DNA from: Anaerolineales bacterium
GTDB taxonomy: Bacteria; Chloroflexota; Anaerolineae; Epilineales; JAANWY01
Assembly: GCA_018263655.1 (NCBI GenBank)
Contig: JAANWY010000334.1
Location: 1 to 32,674, forward strand
Length of the DNA stretch: 32,674 bases
Direction of reading: 5' to 3'
Position numbers and translations under genes: made by a program. The notes under the pieces are model-generated. The model saw nothing but the letters and a program-made list of their open reading frames with translations. It had not been told where the DNA came from and searched no databases. Positions 1-32,412 of the stretch are shown one piece after another (positions within the stretch are counted from its first letter, which is position 1; the number at the start of each line of letters is the position of its first letter).

Positions 1-110
1 GAAGTGGAGATCGTATCGAAGGGTGCGGCTCAAGCAACGCCTCGAGGCAAACCCGCACCCTTCGATACAGCTTTCGCTTCGCTACAGCTTACTCAGGATG
101 CTGGTCAACG
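1..110. repeat. Partial palindromic repeat at window edge
   Basis: A 15-bp perfect inverted repeat, GTATCGAAGGGTGCG at 13-27 and its complement at 54-68, encloses a GC-rich loop. In reverse complement the sequence resembles the core of the MITE at 197-444 (GTATCGAGG, GGTGCGGGTTTGC, GCAAGCCGCACCC). It is therefore probably the inside of a related element, cut by the window edge and in the opposite orientation. No gene is visible here. Confidence 0.5.
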
Positions 111-196
111 AATTAAGCATAATCGGCACCATTATTTACTTGCAGTTCCCTAAAGTGGTCAACATGCCCCTCGGGACACCATGAAGTAAAAAATAG

Positions 197-444
197 GTAA
201 CCGTTCAGGAGGTATTAGGACTAGCATCCCGAGTAGCGCGAAACAACGTTGAGCGCGTATCGAGGGGTGCGGGTTTGCGACGATTCTTCGCGCAAGCCGC
301 ACCCCCTTCGATGAACTCGGGACGTCGCTTCGATACGACCTCGGCTTCGCCTCGGTCTACTCAGGCGGCGTCCTGAGCGGCGTCCTGAGCCTGTCGAAGG
401 GCCTGTCGAAGGGATGCTCCATGGGTTACCCCCTGAACGCTTAC
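197..444. mobile_element. MITE, IS66-like termini, copy 1 (248 bp)
   Basis: Non-coding element. Its left end reads GTAACCGTTCAGG and its right end, read as complement, GTAAGCGTTCAGGGGG, giving imperfect terminal inverted repeats that begin GTAA. It is flanked by a perfect 8-bp direct repeat AAAAATAG at 189-196 and 445-452, the mark of a transposition event. The interior is a large GC-rich palindrome around GGTGCGGG/CCGCACCC plus several CCTGAGCCTGTCGAAGGG words. GTAA-starting ends and 8-bp target duplications are typical of the IS66 family, so an IS66 transposase encoded elsewhere is the likely mobiliser (inference). It ends about 100 bp upstream of the BMP lipoprotein gene. Confidence 0.85.
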
Positions 445-547
445 AAAAATAGTTCTGGCTCGGTCTGTAAGCGAAGCGGCGACCGGCCAGAGCGGCATTC
501 ATAGATCCCCCAAGAATCACCGGACGACAAGGAAAGGAGCAAGAGAG

Positions 548-7808: not shown

Positions 7809-7837
7809 TTGACAGGCCGGCCTTCACAGCCTATACT
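7809..7837 (+). promoter_or_regulatory. Sigma70 promoter of the Rpn-like gene, leaderless
   Basis: TTGACA at 7809-7814, a 17-bp spacer and TATACT at 7832-7837. The ATG at 7845 begins eight bases after the -10 box, so transcription should start at or next to the A of the start codon, giving a leaderless mRNA. There is no Shine-Dalgarno sequence. The alternative in-frame TTG at 7809 falls inside the -35 box and is rejected. Confidence 0.6.
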
Positions 7838-7844
7838 TGTTGGC

Positions 7845-8927
7845 ATGGGAGACATCGGCTCACCCCATGACCACTTCTTTCGCATGGCCTTTGGCCGGCC
7901 CGAAGTGGCCAGGGACTTTCTACACCACTACCTGTCACAACCCGTGCGGGACCTGGTGGACCTGTCCACGCTGACCCCGCACAAAGACTCATTTGTCGAC
8001 GAGGAGCTGCGCGACCACTTTTCGGACCTCCTGTACGAGGTCCGCTTGCACAGCGAGAAGCCGGCCTACGTCTACCTGCTCTTCGAGCACAAGAGCTACT
8101 CGGAGCCGCTGATCGCGTTTCAACTGCTACGCTACATGGTGCGCATTTGGGAAGTCGTTCCACGTGGCGCGAAGAACAAGCTGCGGTCCATCATTCCGCT
8201 GGTGCTGTATCACGGCGAGCGGGTGTGGAAGGTAAAGCTGAACTTCGGATCGTTGTTCGAGGGGCCTGAGGAGCTCAAGCGTTACTTTCCGGATTTCGAG
8301 TACCATCTCATTGATCTGTCGGACTACAGTGACGAAGAGATCATCGGTGAAGTGTTGCTACAGGCGTCGCTCCTGCTGCTCAAGCACATCTTTGACCCGG
8401 CGCTGGCGGAGCGACTGCCGGACATTTTTGGGCTGCTGCGCGAGTTGGCACAGCAGCAAACGGGGTTGGAGTATCTGTACGCAGTGTTGCGTTATGTGTC
8501 ACAAGCTGGCAAGACAGTCACAGAAGAAGACCTACGACAGGCCGTAGAGACGGCGTTTTCTAAAGAAGGAGGTGCACTGGTGGCAACCATTGCTGAACGC
8601 TGGACCGAGCAAGGATTTGAGAAGGGGATCGAGCAGGGAATAAAGCAAGGCATCGAGCTTGGTAAGCAAGAAGGGATTCAGCTTGGCAAACAAGCAGGAA
8701 GACACGAGGGGTTGTTGGCCGGCATCGAGATGGCTCTGGAATTGAGATTCGGCGAAGCGGGGTTGCAACTGCTTTCCGAGGTGCAGAAGACCGAGGACTT
8801 GGAGGCCCTACGGGCGCTCTATGCCGGCATCATCACGGCAACCACGTTAGACGAGTTGCGTGAGCGGCTTCAGTCACGGACAACGGAGCAAAAATCGCAG
8901 CCCGAAGAAGAATCTGACGAGACCTGA
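7845..8927 (+). CDS. Rpn-family recombination-promoting nuclease / putative transposase (PD-(D/E)XK)
   Basis: Protein of 360 aa. The N-terminal GSPHDHFFRMAFGRPEVARDFL and the following segments are typical of the Rpn/YhgA-like (transposase_31) family. The PD-(D/E)XK nuclease core is seen as Asp61 in FSDLLYEV and Glu81-x-Lys83 in LLFEHKS. The C-terminal half has the Gly/Gln/Lys repeat (EKGIEQGIKQGIELGKQ and continuation) that commonly varies in length in this family, then a helical tail. E. coli Rpn proteins are DNA endonucleases that promote RecA-independent recombination, and some act in phage defence. The gene has its own promoter and lies beside an fdrA fragment, consistent with an accessory gene inserted in a metabolic cluster. 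Confidence 0.85.
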   Translation: MGDIGSPHDHFFRMAFGRPEVARDFLHHYLSQPVRDLVDLSTLTPHKDSFVDEELRDHFSDLLYEVRLHSEKPAYVYLLFEHKSYSEPLIAFQLLRYMVRIWEVVPRGAKNKLRSIIPLVLYHGERVWKVKLNFGSLFEGPEELKRYFPDFEYHLIDLSDYSDEEIIGEVLLQASLLLLKHIFDPALAERLPDIFGLLRELAQQQTGLEYLYAVLRYVSQAGKTVTEEDLRQAVETAFSKEGGALVATIAERWTEQGFEKGIEQGIKQGIELGKQEGIQLGKQAGRHEGLLAGIEMALELRFGEAGLQLLSEVQKTEDLEALRALYAGIITATTLDELRERLQSRTTEQKSQPEEESDET

Positions 8928-15455: not shown

Positions 15456-15456
15456 C

Positions 15457-15629
15457 TTGACATTGTTGAATTCGGTTCAGAAACAGTCTTTTGATCGCCG
15501 AAGAGCCTGTGCTGAGCGTAGCCGAAGTATCTCCTGGCCGAGGCGAATCGGGCTCGGTCAGGCCTGCCTGTGCATCGCACGCAGACAGGAGACCTTCGCC
15601 CAACACGTCAGGTAATTTAACATTGTCGA
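15457..15629. repeat. TTGACAATGTCACATT-family palindromic element, copy A (diverged)
   Basis: Starts TTGACATTGTTGAATTCGG and ends AATTTAACATTGTCGA. Inside are CTTTTGATCGCCGAAG, a GAGGCGAATCGGGCTCGGTC core and CAGGAGACCTTCGCCCAACA, the same order as copy C at 25459-25604, with extra insertions and mismatches. It lies directly after the DinB gene and may terminate or stabilise its transcript. Confidence 0.75.
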
Positions 15630-15637
15630 GGTGGCTT

Positions 15638-23120: not shown

Positions 23121-23162
23121 GGAAGTCAACAGAACTCCCCAGACATTTCAGTTAGAGTTAGC

Positions 23163-23281
23163 TTGACAATGACACATTACCGCCTATGATGGGCGAAGGT
23201 CTCCTGACCGGGCGAAAAGGGCTCGGTCAGGAGACCTGCGGCGATCAAACAGCGCTGTTTTGCGAAATGTGCCATTGTCAA
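23163..23281. repeat. TTGACAATGTCACATT-family palindromic element, copy B
   Basis: Ends TTGACAATGACACATTACCG and AATGTGCCATTGTCAA. The centre has GGTCTCCTGACCGGGCG and GGGCTCGGTCAGGAGACC as facing arms. The interior orientation (GGGCGAAGG first, GCGATCAAA last) matches copy D and is opposite to copies A and C. It follows the amidase gene by 42 bp. Confidence 0.85.
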
Positions 23282-23292
23282 GTTAGGAATTG

Positions 23293-25390: not shown

Positions 25391-25458
25391 GTATGCGTTC
25401 CCCCCGCCGACCCCTTTTTCCCGGGTTGCGCAACTGCGAGGGCGGTCGCCTGAGTAGC

Positions 25459-25604
25459 TTGACAATGTCACATTCGGCTCAGGAACAGTCCTTTGATCGC
25501 CGAAGGTCTCCTGACCGAGGCGAAACGGGCCCTTCGTCAGGCTCAGGACGCCGCTCGGTCAGGAGACCTTCGCCCAACGTGGGGCGGTAATGTGACATTG
25601 TCAA
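25459..25604. repeat. TTGACAATGTCACATT-family palindromic element, copy C
   Basis: The ends TTGACAATGTCACATT and AATGTGACATTGTCAA are a perfect 16-bp inverted repeat. Inside, CGAAGGTCTCCTGACCGAG faces CTCGGTCAGGAGACCTTCG, a perfect 19-bp pair. The loop contains a CTTCGTCAGGCTCAGGACG word, a dispersed repeat nested within this element. The best-preserved copy in the window. Confidence 0.9.
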
Positions 25605-25645
25605 AGCAGTTACGTATACGGATAACTGATCACTGTTGACGCTAG

Positions 25646-25930
25646 GTAACCGTTCAGGGGTATCACGACTAGCATCCCGAGTAGCGCGAAACGACGTCCT
25701 GAGCTTGACGAAGGGCGACGTTGAGCGCGTATCGAGGCAACGTCCTGAGCCCAGTCGAAGGGGGTGCGGGTTTGCGACGGTTCTTCGCACAAGCCGCACC
25801 CCCTTCGACTGGGCTCAGGACGTCGCTTCGATACGACCTCGGCTTTACCTCGGTCTACTCAGGCGGCGTCCTGAGCCTGTCGAAGGGCCTGTCGAAGGGA
25901 TGCTCCATAGGTTACCCCCTGAACGCTTAC
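25646..25930. mobile_element. MITE, IS66-like termini, copy 2 (285 bp)
   Basis: Same ends as copy 1 (GTAACCGTTCAGGGG and, complemented, GTAAGCGTTCAGGGGG) and the same interior, with two extra GTCCTGAGC...GAAGG words that account for the greater length. It is flanked by a perfect 8-bp duplication GACGCTAG at 25638-25645 and 25931-25938, different from the duplication around copy 1. It lies 32 bp upstream of the surE ATG and so separates surE from any upstream promoter. Confidence 0.9.
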
Positions 25931-25962
25931 GACGCTAGAAGCTGAGAGAAGCGAGCCATAAC

Positions 25963-26803: not shown

Positions 26804-26955
26804 CCAGTTGAGGTTCCCACGTCCCCTTGCCCGGATGCGTATCTGACCAGACAGGTTGTGCGTTCTGAATATGTTGAAGCTGTTTGTGTCTAGCAGGCCG
26901 ACGTACCTCGTTTTCAGCCTTTCGAACGTCCCATTCAGTGCCCAGGAGTAACAGC

Positions 26956-28392
26956 ATGCGCCGACATTTTGTCTCGGTTTTTCTACTCACTCTCGCCCTC
27001 ACCATCAGCGGTAGTTTAGTTGCCAACGCCCAAGGCACCAAGGGGGGCGAAGACCCGCAGCAGGCTGGCGAACCCCCAGCCGTCACAATCGATAATGACT
27101 ACATCCGCGTCTCTGCCGATGACGACGGTCAGTTTGTCATCGGCACAACCGGCGGCGATCCTGGCCTCCCCACGGACGACAACAAACGTCTGCTCTACGG
27201 TTATCCGGACGAAATCTGGTCGTCGTTTGCGACAGTGCGCGTGATCGTCGACGGGCAGACTCGAGACATTCGTCTTCTAGACCAGGTGCCGGTCGAAGGT
27301 CCGATCCGACAGGGAAATGCCATCATCACGACGTGGCTCGTTGATGGGATCCGCGTAACCCAGAGACTTGAGCTGGCCTTCAACGTATACACAAACCGGG
27401 AAGACACCATCCGCATTCAGTACACGTTGACGAACACAGCCGGCACCTCTCACGCGGCCGGCGTCCGCTCGATGCTCGATATCGCAATCGGTCGCGTCGG
27501 GCCTGTGGTCGAGGGGGACGGGGCGCCGTACTTCGTCCCTGGTGCCGGCAACTTGACGCACGAGGCGGAGTTCACGGGAAACATCCCCGCCATTTGGAAG
27601 GCCTTTGAGTCGCTCACCTTCGACCCGGCCAGCACCAAGGGCCAGGGCATTCTCGTGGGCCCCGGAGCGACACCACCGGACCGCCTCGTACTGGCCCGGT
27701 GGGGGCGCTTCGAACAGGAGGATGGCATCCGCTTTCACCCGTGGGACTACACCGTCAATCCTGCGGCCGGCTTAACGCTTGACAGCGCAGTCGCGATGTA
27801 CTGGAATCCTCGAGACCTGGCGCCTGGTGCCTCGCGGACGGTCACCACGTTCTACGGGCTCGCCGGGCCGGGCGGTGGTCAGGCGTGGATTGACGCCCCT
27901 GTGACGCTACAATGTCCGGACCTTACCTTCTCAGCCACACACTGGGTCGCCAATACCGGCGACGAGCCGTTTACGGGTGGCAGTTCGACGATCACACTGC
28001 CGGGCGAACTGGAGATCGTTGATGGCCCCGCCACCCAATCGCTGGGCGCCATCGAGCCCGGCGCGGCTCGTTCAGCCACGTGGATACTGCGACCTCTCTC
28101 CGACGCCCAGGGGGACTTCAGCTACAGTGTGGCGAGCGAGTTCGAGACAGGTTCAGAGCCCTTGACAGCCGAGTCGAGTGTTCACGTGCCTGTGTGCACC
28201 ACGCCCACGCCACCCACACCGACGCCGACGCGGGTCGTAACGCCGGCAGGTCCCACCCCCACGCCTGTGCCGCCAGCAGAGGTGCCTGAGGCTAACACAT
28301 TGATCCTGCTGGCCAGTGGTCTCGGCGCCCTGGCCGGCTACGCACAATTGCGCCGCAGAGCGCGGGGGAGTGAGGACGGCGCTGCGAAGTAG
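26956..28392 (+). CDS. Secreted protein with PEP-CTERM-like exosortase sorting signal
   Basis: Protein of 478 aa. N-terminal signal peptide ([20 protein letters not shown] then VANAQG, cleavage expected near ANA-QG). The body is beta-rich, with no recognised domain, and contains Gly/Asp-rich strands such as [15 protein letters not shown] Thr-Pro-rich linker ([20 protein letters not shown]) is followed by [19 protein letters not shown] and an RRRAR stretch from residue 443. This is the tripartite architecture of a PEP-CTERM substrate: short motif, hydrophobic helix, Arg-rich tail, here with VPEA instead of VPEP. An exosortase and EpsI are encoded 2.2 kb downstream. AGGAG at 26944-26948 selects the ATG at 26956. 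Confidence 0.82.
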
Positions 28393-30385: not shown

Positions 30386-30398
30386 GGCTGTATTGATG

Positions 30399-30432
30399 CG
30401 ACTACTCAGGCACTTCGCACCTACACAAGAAG
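30399..30432. repeat. Short dispersed repeat, copy 1 (CTCAGGCACTTCG)
   Basis: ACTACTCAGGCACTTCGCAC then CTACACAAGAAGA, 13 bp after the seven-repeat protein gene. It is nearly identical to 32207-32240 after epsI. Both copies lie just after a stop codon. Confidence 0.75.
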
Positions 30433-30435
30433 AGA

Positions 30436-30489
30436 CCGGAAAAAGGGGTCGGTGGAGGGCGGCCGCCCTCCACCGACCCCTTTTTCCGG
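30436..30489 (+). terminator. 54-bp perfect palindrome, probable bidirectional terminator
   Basis: A perfect inverted repeat centred at 30462/30463: each 27-base arm reads CCGGAAAAAGGGGTCGGTGG and continues to GAGGGCGG. The stem is GC-rich with A5/T5 runs near its base, as in an intrinsic terminator working in both directions. It separates the seven-repeat protein gene from the exosortase gene. Part of one arm (CCGACCCCTTTTTCC and the following GCGAGGGC) recurs near 25404-25435. Confidence 0.75.
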
Positions 30490-30560
30490 ATTTCCCACCT
30501 GCGAGGGCAGTAGCCGGGCGATAGCCTGGGTAGTTACGTATTGATTCGATTGATAACGCG

Positions 30561-31385
30561 ATGCTAAACCGAGACCGGGAACACATTTTTGGCATTACGG
30601 CCATGGTGGCGCTTCTGGGCCTTGTCTTCCTGCCGACGCTGCGCTGGCTGGTCGACTCTTGGCTGGGGGATCCGTACTACTCGCATGGGTTTCTTGTCCC
30701 AGTTGTGGCCGGCTATCTCATCTGGCGCCAACGCCATGTGAAAATCGAGCCGTGGGACGCCGGCCTGGCGGTCGTGACGCTGGGCGTGATCTTGCACATT
30801 GCGTCTCTGCCCACGCGAAATCATATCCTGTCGGCGGCTGGTCTACTCGTTGTGCTGGTCGGACTGACGCTCACCTTTGTCGGCCGGCGGGCGGCGAGAC
30901 GCTGGGCCTTCGCGTTTGCGTTCCTGGGCACCGCGATCCCCCTGCCGTTTGTGGAACGCTTCAGCCCGCCGCTGGAGGCCTTCGTTGCTCGCTACGCAGC
31001 CGTGTGCGTGCGTCCGTTAGGCGTTGTCGCTACGACGATCGGTTCTCAAGTGCAGCTCGCATCGTCAGCCTTCACTGTTGGCGCCCCGTGCAGCGGTCTG
31101 CGATCGATCGTTGCGTTGTTCACCCTGACGATCCTGTTTATCTACCTTGTGCGGGGGCCATGGTGGGGTAAGGTGACCCTCCTTGTCGCTGCACTGCCTA
31201 TCGCTGTTGCAGCCAATCTGATGCGCGTGTCATCGTTGTTTTTCGTCGCGGACAATCTGGGAGCGGACGCCGGCCTGCGCTACTATCACACGCTCTCCAG
31301 TCCAACCCTCTTCCTCTTCGCCCTCGGCATGCTGCTGCTTACCAGCCGAGGCGTAAAGTGTCACGCTATCCGATCGGACATTTAG
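30561..31385 (+). CDS. Exosortase (XrtA-like transpeptidase)
   Basis: Polytopic membrane protein of 274 aa with eight or so hydrophobic segments. The exosortase catalytic residues are present: Cys177 in GAPCSGLRS, Arg222 in ANLMRVSS and His243 in RYYHTLSS. It is expected to cleave PEP-CTERM-type tails and attach or release the protein at the outer surface. The likely substrate is the protein encoded at 26956-28392. The ribosome binding site before the ATG at 30561 is weak. The EpsI gene follows closely (11 bp), the usual exosortase partner. Confidence 0.92.
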   Translation: MLNRDREHIFGITAMVALLGLVFLPTLRWLVDSWLGDPYYSHGFLVPVVAGYLIWRQRHVKIEPWDAGLAVVTLGVILHIASLPTRNHILSAAGLLVVLVGLTLTFVGRRAARRWAFAFAFLGTAIPLPFVERFSPPLEAFVARYAAVCVRPLGVVATTIGSQVQLASSAFTVGAPCSGLRSIVALFTLTILFIYLVRGPWWGKVTLLVAALPIAVAANLMRVSSLFFVADNLGADAGLRYYHTLSSPTLFLFALGMLLLTSRGVKCHAIRSDI

Positions 31386-31396
31386 GGAGCTGGTGT

Positions 31397-32197
31397 ATGG
31401 AGGATGGAGAACGGAAAATGGAAAATGGAAGGGAGCGGATAGCCGATGAAGCTCCGTCTTCCGCCTTCTCTTTTCCATCTTCCCTTCCCCGTTTCAGCCT
31501 GGTTGCCGGCTTGTTGCTTCTGGCATTCGGTGCCTCACTCCTCTTTCAGCCTGGGATGCTGGGAGCCGTGCCGGGAGAGGGTGAGCGCCCGGCGGCGGGT
31601 GCCGGCACGAGGGGGGACGTGTACTTCACCGACACCGAAGGCTGGTACCGCATCACCGACAACGAGCGCGCCGTTCTCAGCCCGTATGCGCTGCACCTCG
31701 ATGCCCTGCCGGACAGCTTGCCGATGGACCTCGGCCCGTGGCGTGGCAGAGAGCTACCCCTTGGCCCCGAAATCGACGAGTGGTTCGACGAACCAGAGGT
31801 TGCCCTCCAGCGCGAGTATCGGAATGCCGGCGACGACATCGTCTGGCTCAGCGTCTTCGGCAGTCGGGGTCCCAAGAGTTTCCGGCTGTTCGAACACACG
31901 CCGGCAACATGCTACCCTTTATCCGGCTGGGAGATGACGCGGGAGGATGTGGACACGATCCCGATTGGCAGCGGCGAGATCTACGCGCGACGTGGTTTCG
32001 CTGTGAACGGTGCACACGAACTGATCGTCCTGTACCTGTATCTCTGGGATAATCCAAACCGTGACTCGGCCGATGGTGTTGTGTCCATTCGGGCGAGTGC
32101 CCCCATTCTGACCAGCGAGGCGGAAACGCTCCGCTTACTGAAGCAGGAGTTTCTGCCCTATCTGTTCACGGACGTCGTGCCGTGGCGCCGGTTCTAG
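31397..32197 (+). CDS. EpsI-family exosortase-associated protein
   Basis: Protein of 266 aa. A polar start is followed by a membrane segment (FSLVAGLLLLAFGASLLF) and a periplasmic/extracellular EpsI domain with PMDLGPWRGRELPL and the family hallmark HTPATCYPLSGWEM. AGGGAG near 31383-31388 supports the ATG at 31397; a GTG at 31358 overlapping the exosortase gene is an alternative. The first ~33 residues (MEDGERKMENGRER and on to SSLPRF) are encoded by a GGAGAATGGAAAATGG / CTTTTCCATCTTCCC repeat like that at 1859-1945, so the cytoplasmic N-terminus is repeat-derived. It forms an operon with the exosortase. Confidence 0.87.
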   Translation: MEDGERKMENGRERIADEAPSSAFSFPSSLPRFSLVAGLLLLAFGASLLFQPGMLGAVPGEGERPAAGAGTRGDVYFTDTEGWYRITDNERAVLSPYALHLDALPDSLPMDLGPWRGRELPLGPEIDEWFDEPEVALQREYRNAGDDIVWLSVFGSRGPKSFRLFEHTPATCYPLSGWEMTREDVDTIPIGSGEIYARRGFAVNGAHELIVLYLYLWDNPNRDSADGVVSIRASAPILTSEAETLRLLKQEFLPYLFTDVVPWRRF

Positions 32198-32240: not shown

Positions 32241-32256
32241 CAGCAGCCTGAGTAGT

Positions 32257-32376
32257 TTGACAATGTCACATTACCGTCCCACGTTGGGCGAAGGTCTCCT
32301 GACCGAGCCCGATTCGCCTCGGTCAGGAGACCTTCGGCGATCAAAGGACTGTTTCTGAGCCGAATGTGACATTGTC
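32257..32376. repeat. TTGACAATGTCACATT-family palindromic element, copy D
   Basis: Ends TTGACAATGTCACATTACCG and CCGAATGTGACATTGTC. The inner arms CGAAGGTCTCCTGACCGAG and CTCGGTCAGGAGACCTTCG are perfect. The interior is inverted relative to copy C, yet both are preceded by CCTGAGTAG. It lies between epsI and the cvpA-like gene. Confidence 0.9.
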
Positions 32377-32412
32377 GGTGAGAATTAGGCCGTGTAGTGG
32401 GTATCGCTCGCT

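What the first reader, a model, noticed from the sequence alone, without database searches (positions are those of the whole stretch)
189..452. MITE with IS66-like ends and perfect 8-bp target duplications at two sites
The elements at 197-444 and 25646-25930 share ends beginning GTAA[CG]CGTTCAGG. Each is flanked by its own perfect 8-bp direct repeat: AAAAATAG (189-196, 445-452) and GACGCTAG (25638-25645, 25931-25938). Different duplications at the two sites prove independent insertion. GTAA ends and 8-bp duplications are known features of the IS66 family. The elements carry no transposase, so they must be mobilised in trans.
Basis: partly seen in the sequence, partly recalled or inferred. Interest (0 to 1): 0.7.

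Follow-up and report, generated by a model that had tools for sequence, protein, structure and literature searches.

The report
IS66-type mini-transposons with swapped palindromic cores
The two short repeats are real, gene-less jumping elements whose ends match IS66-family transposons; this uncultured Chloroflexota genome holds several hundred such elements, and the same hairpin-forming cores also sit inside the ends of unrelated transposons, which hints that cores are swapped or captured between them.

Summary
Confirmed. Window 197-444 and 25646-25930 are MITEs with GTAASCGTTCAGG ends and perfect, different 8-bp duplications. A third GTAA-type/8-bp element lies at 30398-30537 (end variant GTRACTRCTCAGGC). 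The genome (3.83-Mb MAG) has 557 copies of the first end (23 in the reversed control) and 306 of the second (6 in control). In 1.09 Mb sampled, 55 of 77 paired first-type ends carry a 7-8/8 target duplication, and two other copies have matching empty sites. Transposase-bearing elements with the same ends and 8-bp duplications exist: single-ORF, ISBst12-type IS66 elements in the same order (L083), the same class (L077) and other phyla. No IS66 transposase with these ends is in this genome's assembly (79% complete), so mobilisation in trans is inferred. One B core is identical over 50 bp between shells no more alike than chance, while cores within one shell can be only ~70% identical. In other genomes of the class, core C occurs bare and in several shells. 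Element: new member of a known kind; core modularity: new variant.

The parts
189..196 (.). target-site duplication AAAAATAG, left copy, element 1
197..209 (+). left terminal inverted repeat GTAACCGTTCAGG, element 1
   Evidence: same type of end as IS66 elements L083 and L077
197..444 (+). IS66-type (T1) MITE, 248 bp, B core
   Evidence: DNA fold z-score -6.4
223..418 (+). palindromic B core (AGCATCC...GGATGCT), subtype B2
432..444 (-). right terminal inverted repeat GTAAGCGTTCAGG, element 1
445..452 (.). target-site duplication AAAAATAG, right copy, element 1
25638..25645 (.). target-site duplication GACGCTAG, left copy, element 2
25646..25930 (+). IS66-type (T1) MITE, 285 bp, B core with extra inserts; ends 32 bp before the surE start (25963)
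   Evidence: DNA fold z-score -11.6
25671..25904 (+). palindromic B core (AGCATCC...GGATGCT), subtype B2
25931..25938 (.). target-site duplication GACGCTAG, right copy, element 2
30390..30397 (.). target-site duplication GTATTGAT, left copy, element 3
   Evidence: ends like ISDge4 of the ISBst12 group
30538..30545 (.). target-site duplication GTATTGAT, right copy, element 3
1..127 (-). truncated T3 element (end GCCGATTATGCTTAATT) carrying the B core; cut by the contig start
25458..25605 (+). T4 palindrome (CTTGACAATGTC...GACATTGTCAA, 4-bp duplication), apparently inserted in the end of a T2 element relic

Best explanation
Both elements are non-autonomous transposons of the IS66 family, ISBst12-like (single-ORF) branch. 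Mechanism: an IS66-type DDE transposase made elsewhere binds the ~13-bp ends GTAASCGTTCAGG and joins the element to a new site with an 8-bp stagger, giving 8-bp duplications (duplications, and empty sites of two sister copies: shown; action of the transposase in trans: inferred). Because cores behind these ends are unrelated to each other, the terminal 13-16 bp seems to suffice for recognition (inferred). The interiors are strong palindromes that behave as modules: core B is found inside three unrelated end types, so palindromic cores were captured or exchanged between elements moved by different transposases (pattern shown; route, by recombination or by insertion of the core, unknown).
For: Exact ends and duplications. 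Genome-wide ends 557 vs 23 control; 46 of 77 pairs with 8/8 and 9 with 7/8 duplications against 0 and 44 in 20,000 random pairings. Empty paralogous sites with a single copy of the 8-mer: L040 18780-18912 (GAAAATAA) vs L035 17046-17126; L058 2583-2854 (TCTTCGCT) vs L111 and L059. IS66 transposase elements with the same ends: L083 (same order, 1445 bp, GAGTGCCT twice), L077 (same class, 1597 bp, ends identical over 13 bp, 7/8 duplication); proteins above the NCBIfam IS66 cut-off; invariant acidic positions D222, D273, E393. 10 of 35 related IS66 loci from several phyla have resolvable GTAA ends with 7-8/8 duplications. Literature: IS66 repeats begin GTAAGCG, with 8-bp repeats (PMC11946415); ISDge4, ISBst12 group, has ends GTGACTACTCAGCA/GTAACTGCTCAGCA, an 8-bp repeat and one 449-aa ORF (PMC12898284), like the T2 set here. 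Core modularity: 35 of 36 B-like units sit in a shell: 24 T1, 5 T3, 6 T5; T1-B1 vs T3 core 91.5% mean, up to 100% over 50 bp, shells 44% vs 42% for shuffles, B1 vs B2 cores within T1 70%. C core in related genomes bare, in T1, in T4 and in T2-like ends.
Against: No IS66 transposase with these ends in the 79%-complete assembly; the only PF03050 hit is weak and lacks such ends. 22 of 77 pairs have no 7-8/8 duplication. Only ~13-16 bp is shared with autonomous elements, so descent from one specific IS66 is not shown. No transposition was observed. The shells T3 and T5 were not tied to a transposase.
Confidence: 0.88

Rival explanations
1. The elements are internal-deletion derivatives of one IS66 parent that then diverged; different cores are just diverged remnants of the parent.
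For: MITEs often arise this way (e.g. the IS982-derived MITE of Cardinium, PMC9769881); left/right asymmetry (GTAAC/GTAAG) is shared with L083 and L077.
Against: Cores A, B, C, D, E share no evident similarity beyond the ends, and cores B and C also occur behind unrelated ends, which deletion alone cannot give.
Confidence: 0.08
2. The ends belong to another 8-bp-duplicating transposon family, not IS66.
For: No IS66 transposase with these ends in the assembled genome; other IS families also make 8-bp repeats (own knowledge).
Against: The same end sequence flanks IS66 transposase genes with 8-bp duplications in several phyla; published IS66 ends agree.
Confidence: 0.03
3. Core sharing between T1, T3 and T5 shells is independent capture of a common genomic palindrome rather than exchange between shells (this competes only with the route of core sharing, not with the IS66 assignment).
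For: The C core occurs bare in G053 and G091, so palindromes can exist on their own; the core boundaries AGCATCC/GGATGCT are the same in all shells.
Against: In the sampled part of this genome no bare B core was found, and one core is identical over 50 bp across two shells, which points to recent transfer.
Confidence: 0.4

Closest known systems
ISBst12 group of the IS66 family (e.g. ISDge4 of Deinococcus geothermalis, PMC12898284)
   Same: GTAA/GTGA-type 13-14-bp ends, slightly different left and right, 8-bp duplication; partner elements in relatives have one ~460-490-aa transposase ORF
   Different: The window elements carry no transposase and are 140-285 bp; interiors are palindromes unrelated to the transposase gene
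High-copy bacterial MITEs (e.g. MITECca01 of Cardinium, 169 copies, IS982-derived, PMC9769881)
   Same: Short, non-coding, terminal inverted repeats, many copies
   Different: Here several unrelated cores share one end set, and no parental IS is in the assembly
CGTC-tagged REPs (PMC3733652)
   Same: The C core (TGTCATTGCGAG..GAAGCAATCTCCA and mirror) has a TGTC tag, an AT-first stem and a CCA-like tail, as an inverted pair
   Different: Stem and loop lengths were not shown to fit; here copies can sit inside IS66-type ends with 8-bp duplications, whereas CGTC REPs are reported to lack a dedicated transposase

Membership tests
IS66 family (non-autonomous member) | termini starting GTAA | tested here: met
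   all four ends of the two elements
IS66 family (non-autonomous member) | 8-bp target duplication | tested here: met
   both copies perfect; 55 of 77 genome pairs 7-8/8; empty sites of two sister copies
IS66 family (non-autonomous member) | ends match those of elements encoding an IS66 transposase | tested here: met
   L083, L077 and others
IS66 family (non-autonomous member) | matching transposase source in the same genome (expected for an active MITE, not a defining feature) | tested here: inconclusive
   none found: PF03050 gives one weak hit without such ends and the L083 transposase finds none, but the assembly is only 79% complete
ISBst12 group | single transposase ORF, no tnpA/tnpB, in the matching autonomous elements | tested here: met
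   L083 460 aa in 1445 bp, L077 489 aa in 1597 bp
MITE | short, no coding capacity, inverted-repeat ends, many copies | tested here: met
   248/285 bp; overlapping 99/100-aa ORFs have no Pfam match; hundreds of ends
MITE | demonstrated movement by a transposase in trans | not testable with these tools
   needs an experiment
CGTC-tagged REP superfamily (for core C only) | CGTC/TGTC tag, 8-9-bp stem beginning AT, 4-5-nt loop, CCA tail | tested here: inconclusive
   tag, AT start and tail look right in the sequences; stem and loop lengths not shown to fit; consensus figure of PMC3733652 not held
IS5-like (YTAR) element, for T4 only | 4-bp YTAR target duplication | tested here: inconclusive
   16 of 26 pairs with 4/4, several TTAG/CTAA/CTAC; no transposase linked

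The most novel reading that the evidence does not exclude
Hairpin-forming cores, including REP-like palindromes (core C) that spread without a known transposase, are modules that travel by lodging inside the shells of several unrelated DNA transposons, with IS66/ISBst12-type ends as one main vehicle; MITE families in these Chloroflexota are therefore combinations of a transposase-specific shell and an interchangeable palindromic cargo.
Probability: 0.35. Interest if true: 0.75.

Novelty: new variant of a known kind. Interest (0 to 1): 0.5.

Why it matters
No description of IS66-mobilised MITEs turned up in the open papers searched; subscription papers were not searchable. Here such elements number several hundred in one genome. 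If cores are interchangeable between shells, this gives a testable route for the spread of palindromic repeats: PMC3733652 notes that CGTC REPs lack a dedicated transposase and suggests that a broad range of transposases might move them. The shared 13-16-bp ends also suggest how little DNA an ISBst12-type transposase needs.

Tried and rejected
The one weak PF03050 hit (L031, 724 aa; also resembles IS6 and ISL3 transposases) was considered as mobiliser and rejected: no GTAASCGTTCAGG ends around it and no terminal repeats of its own found. A 25-base pattern of the A-core left end gave 0 matches in genome contigs, where the own genome may be left out. A text search for the C core in papers found nothing relevant. 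Empty sites from other strains could not be tested: the nearest genomes are of other families. Several junction-spanning BLAST hits were self-overlaps and were discarded.

Full report
Observation. Element 1 is 248 bp (197-444) between AAAAATAG repeats, element 2 is 285 bp (25646-25930) between GACGCTAG repeats. Both have a left end GTAACCGTTCAGG and a right end GTAAGCGTTCAGG; the fifth base differs between left and right in both copies. As single-stranded DNA both fold far better than shuffled sequence (z -6.4 and -11.6). The short ORFs that overlap them have no Pfam match.

Copy number and insertion. The window lies in a 3.83-Mb, 401-contig MAG (78.6% complete). The end GTAASCGTTCAG occurs 557 times at up to one mismatch, its reversed control 23 times, i.e. 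roughly 270 elements. In 1.09 Mb of fetched stretches I found 77 paired ends 80-450 bp apart: 46 have a perfect 8-bp duplication and 9 have 7/8, against none and 44 in 20,000 random pairings of flanks. The remaining 22 (one of them cut by a contig end) may include decayed copies, recombinants and chance pairs; I did not sort them. For two other copies the joined flanks match an unoccupied paralogous stretch that has the 8-mer once: L040 18780-18912 against L035, and L058 2583-2854 against L111 and L059. This is direct evidence for precise insertion with 8-bp duplication in the family; it was not available for the two window copies themselves.

Transposase. PF03050 has one weak hit in the whole assembly, without these ends, and the L083 transposase finds nothing there. 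Of 100 genomes searched as relatives (own included), 27 have PF03050 matches. Two relatives carry the matching ends around the gene: L083 (same order; 1445 bp, one 460-aa ORF, GAGTGCCT duplication, ends GTAACCGTTCAGCC and GTAAGCGTTCACCC) and L077 (same class; 1597 bp, one 489-aa ORF, both 13-bp ends identical, 7/8 duplication). Both proteins pass the NCBIfam IS66 cut-off and share the acidic positions D222, D273, E393 (assignment as the DDE triad is from knowledge of the family). The record of L083 is titled Ardenticatenales bacterium, which places the window in Chloroflexota, same order as that genome. Of 35 related IS66 loci examined, 10 had resolvable GTAA ends with 7-8/8 duplications, among them cyanobacterial, planctomycete, actinobacterial and Omnitrophota records with ends such as GTAACCGTTCAGGGGG and GTAACCGTTCAC (two of the ten are re-finds of L083 and L077). 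Published IS66 ends and 8-bp repeats agree (PMC11946415; PMC12898284). I therefore file the elements as non-autonomous IS66-family transposons of the ISBst12-like branch; the act of mobilisation in trans is inferred.

A second end set. A related set, GTRACTRCTCAGGC (T2), has 306 ends against 6 in the control; of 24 pairs listed, 16 have 8/8 and 4 have 7/8 duplications. One is in the window at 30398-30537 with GTATTGAT on both sides. Its ends resemble those of ISDge4, an ISBst12-group element seen to transpose.

Several cores, shared between shells. Behind the T1 ends lie at least six unrelated interiors (A, the 133-bp class; B, the window copies; C; D; E; F, seen once). Core B begins AGCATCC and ends GGATGCT. 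Of 36 B-like units, 24 are in T1, 5 in T3 (ends RCCGATTATGCTTAATT), 6 in T5 (ends CTCGGCAKAAATNNNTCACCAGTTA), and 1 looks like a spurious match. T3 copies show 6-7-bp flanking repeats in three cases by eye. The first 50 bp of the B1 subtype in T1 and of two T3 cores are 91.5% identical on average and identical in the best case, although the T1 and T3 shells are no more alike than shuffled sequence (44% vs 42%); B1 and B2 cores inside the same T1 shell are only 70% identical on average (partly because of inserted units) while their left shells are 92% identical. So core and shell histories differ. In other genomes of the class, T1-ended MITEs, several with 8-bp duplications, carry core C, a B-like core (L172) or an E-like core (L184), and core C also occurs bare, in T4 ends (L208, L218) and in T2-like ends (L193). 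Whether cores insert on their own, are captured at MITE birth, or move by recombination cannot be told from these data.

Verdict. The finding is correct and its interpretation supported. As an IS66-type MITE it is a new member of a known kind; the scale and the sharing of palindromic cores between unrelated shells make it a new variant. Main limits: a MAG with gaps at repeat copies, no transposase in the assembly, no experiment, and T3 and T5 not linked to a transposase.

Noticed in passing
window 25458-25605, 23162-23282, 32256-32379, 15456-15630: Another palindromic element family, T4 (CTTGACAATGTC..GACATTGTCAAG), with 4-bp duplications often of YTAR type (IS5-like); several copies sit at CTAC inside the ends of T2 elements.
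   Followed up: partly
window 1-127; L052 3325-3497; L301, L304: T3 element family (ends RCCGATTATGCTTAATT, mostly 173 bp, 50 exact ends in this genome, none in 30 relatives) carrying the B core; apparent 6-7-bp flanking repeats. No transposase identified.
   Followed up: partly
whole genome G000; e.g. inside the L031 ORF: The unit CTTCGACARGCTCAGGAC occurs 194 times (0 in the reversed control), inside MITE cores and in frame inside a transposase gene (peptides such as RPEPVEG and PSTGSG).
   Followed up: partly
L031 1270-3444 (contig C137): A 724-aa DDE transposase-like protein with matches to IS6, ISL3 and IS66 models but over no NCBIfam cut-off; its terminal repeats were not found.
   Followed up: partly
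window 26884-28392, 30561-31385, 31358-32197: A protein with a borderline PEP-CTERM motif, an exosortase (EpsH family) and a DUF3485 protein close together: a likely exosortase sorting locus in a Chloroflexota genome.
   Followed up: no
window 7809-8927: A YhgA-like putative transposase (PF04754), E 1e-62.
   Followed up: no
contigs of G000 (e.g. C38, C47, C96, C263): Many contigs of the assembly start or end inside B-core MITE copies, so near-identical copies seem to break the assembly and the copy number is likely undercounted.
   Followed up: no
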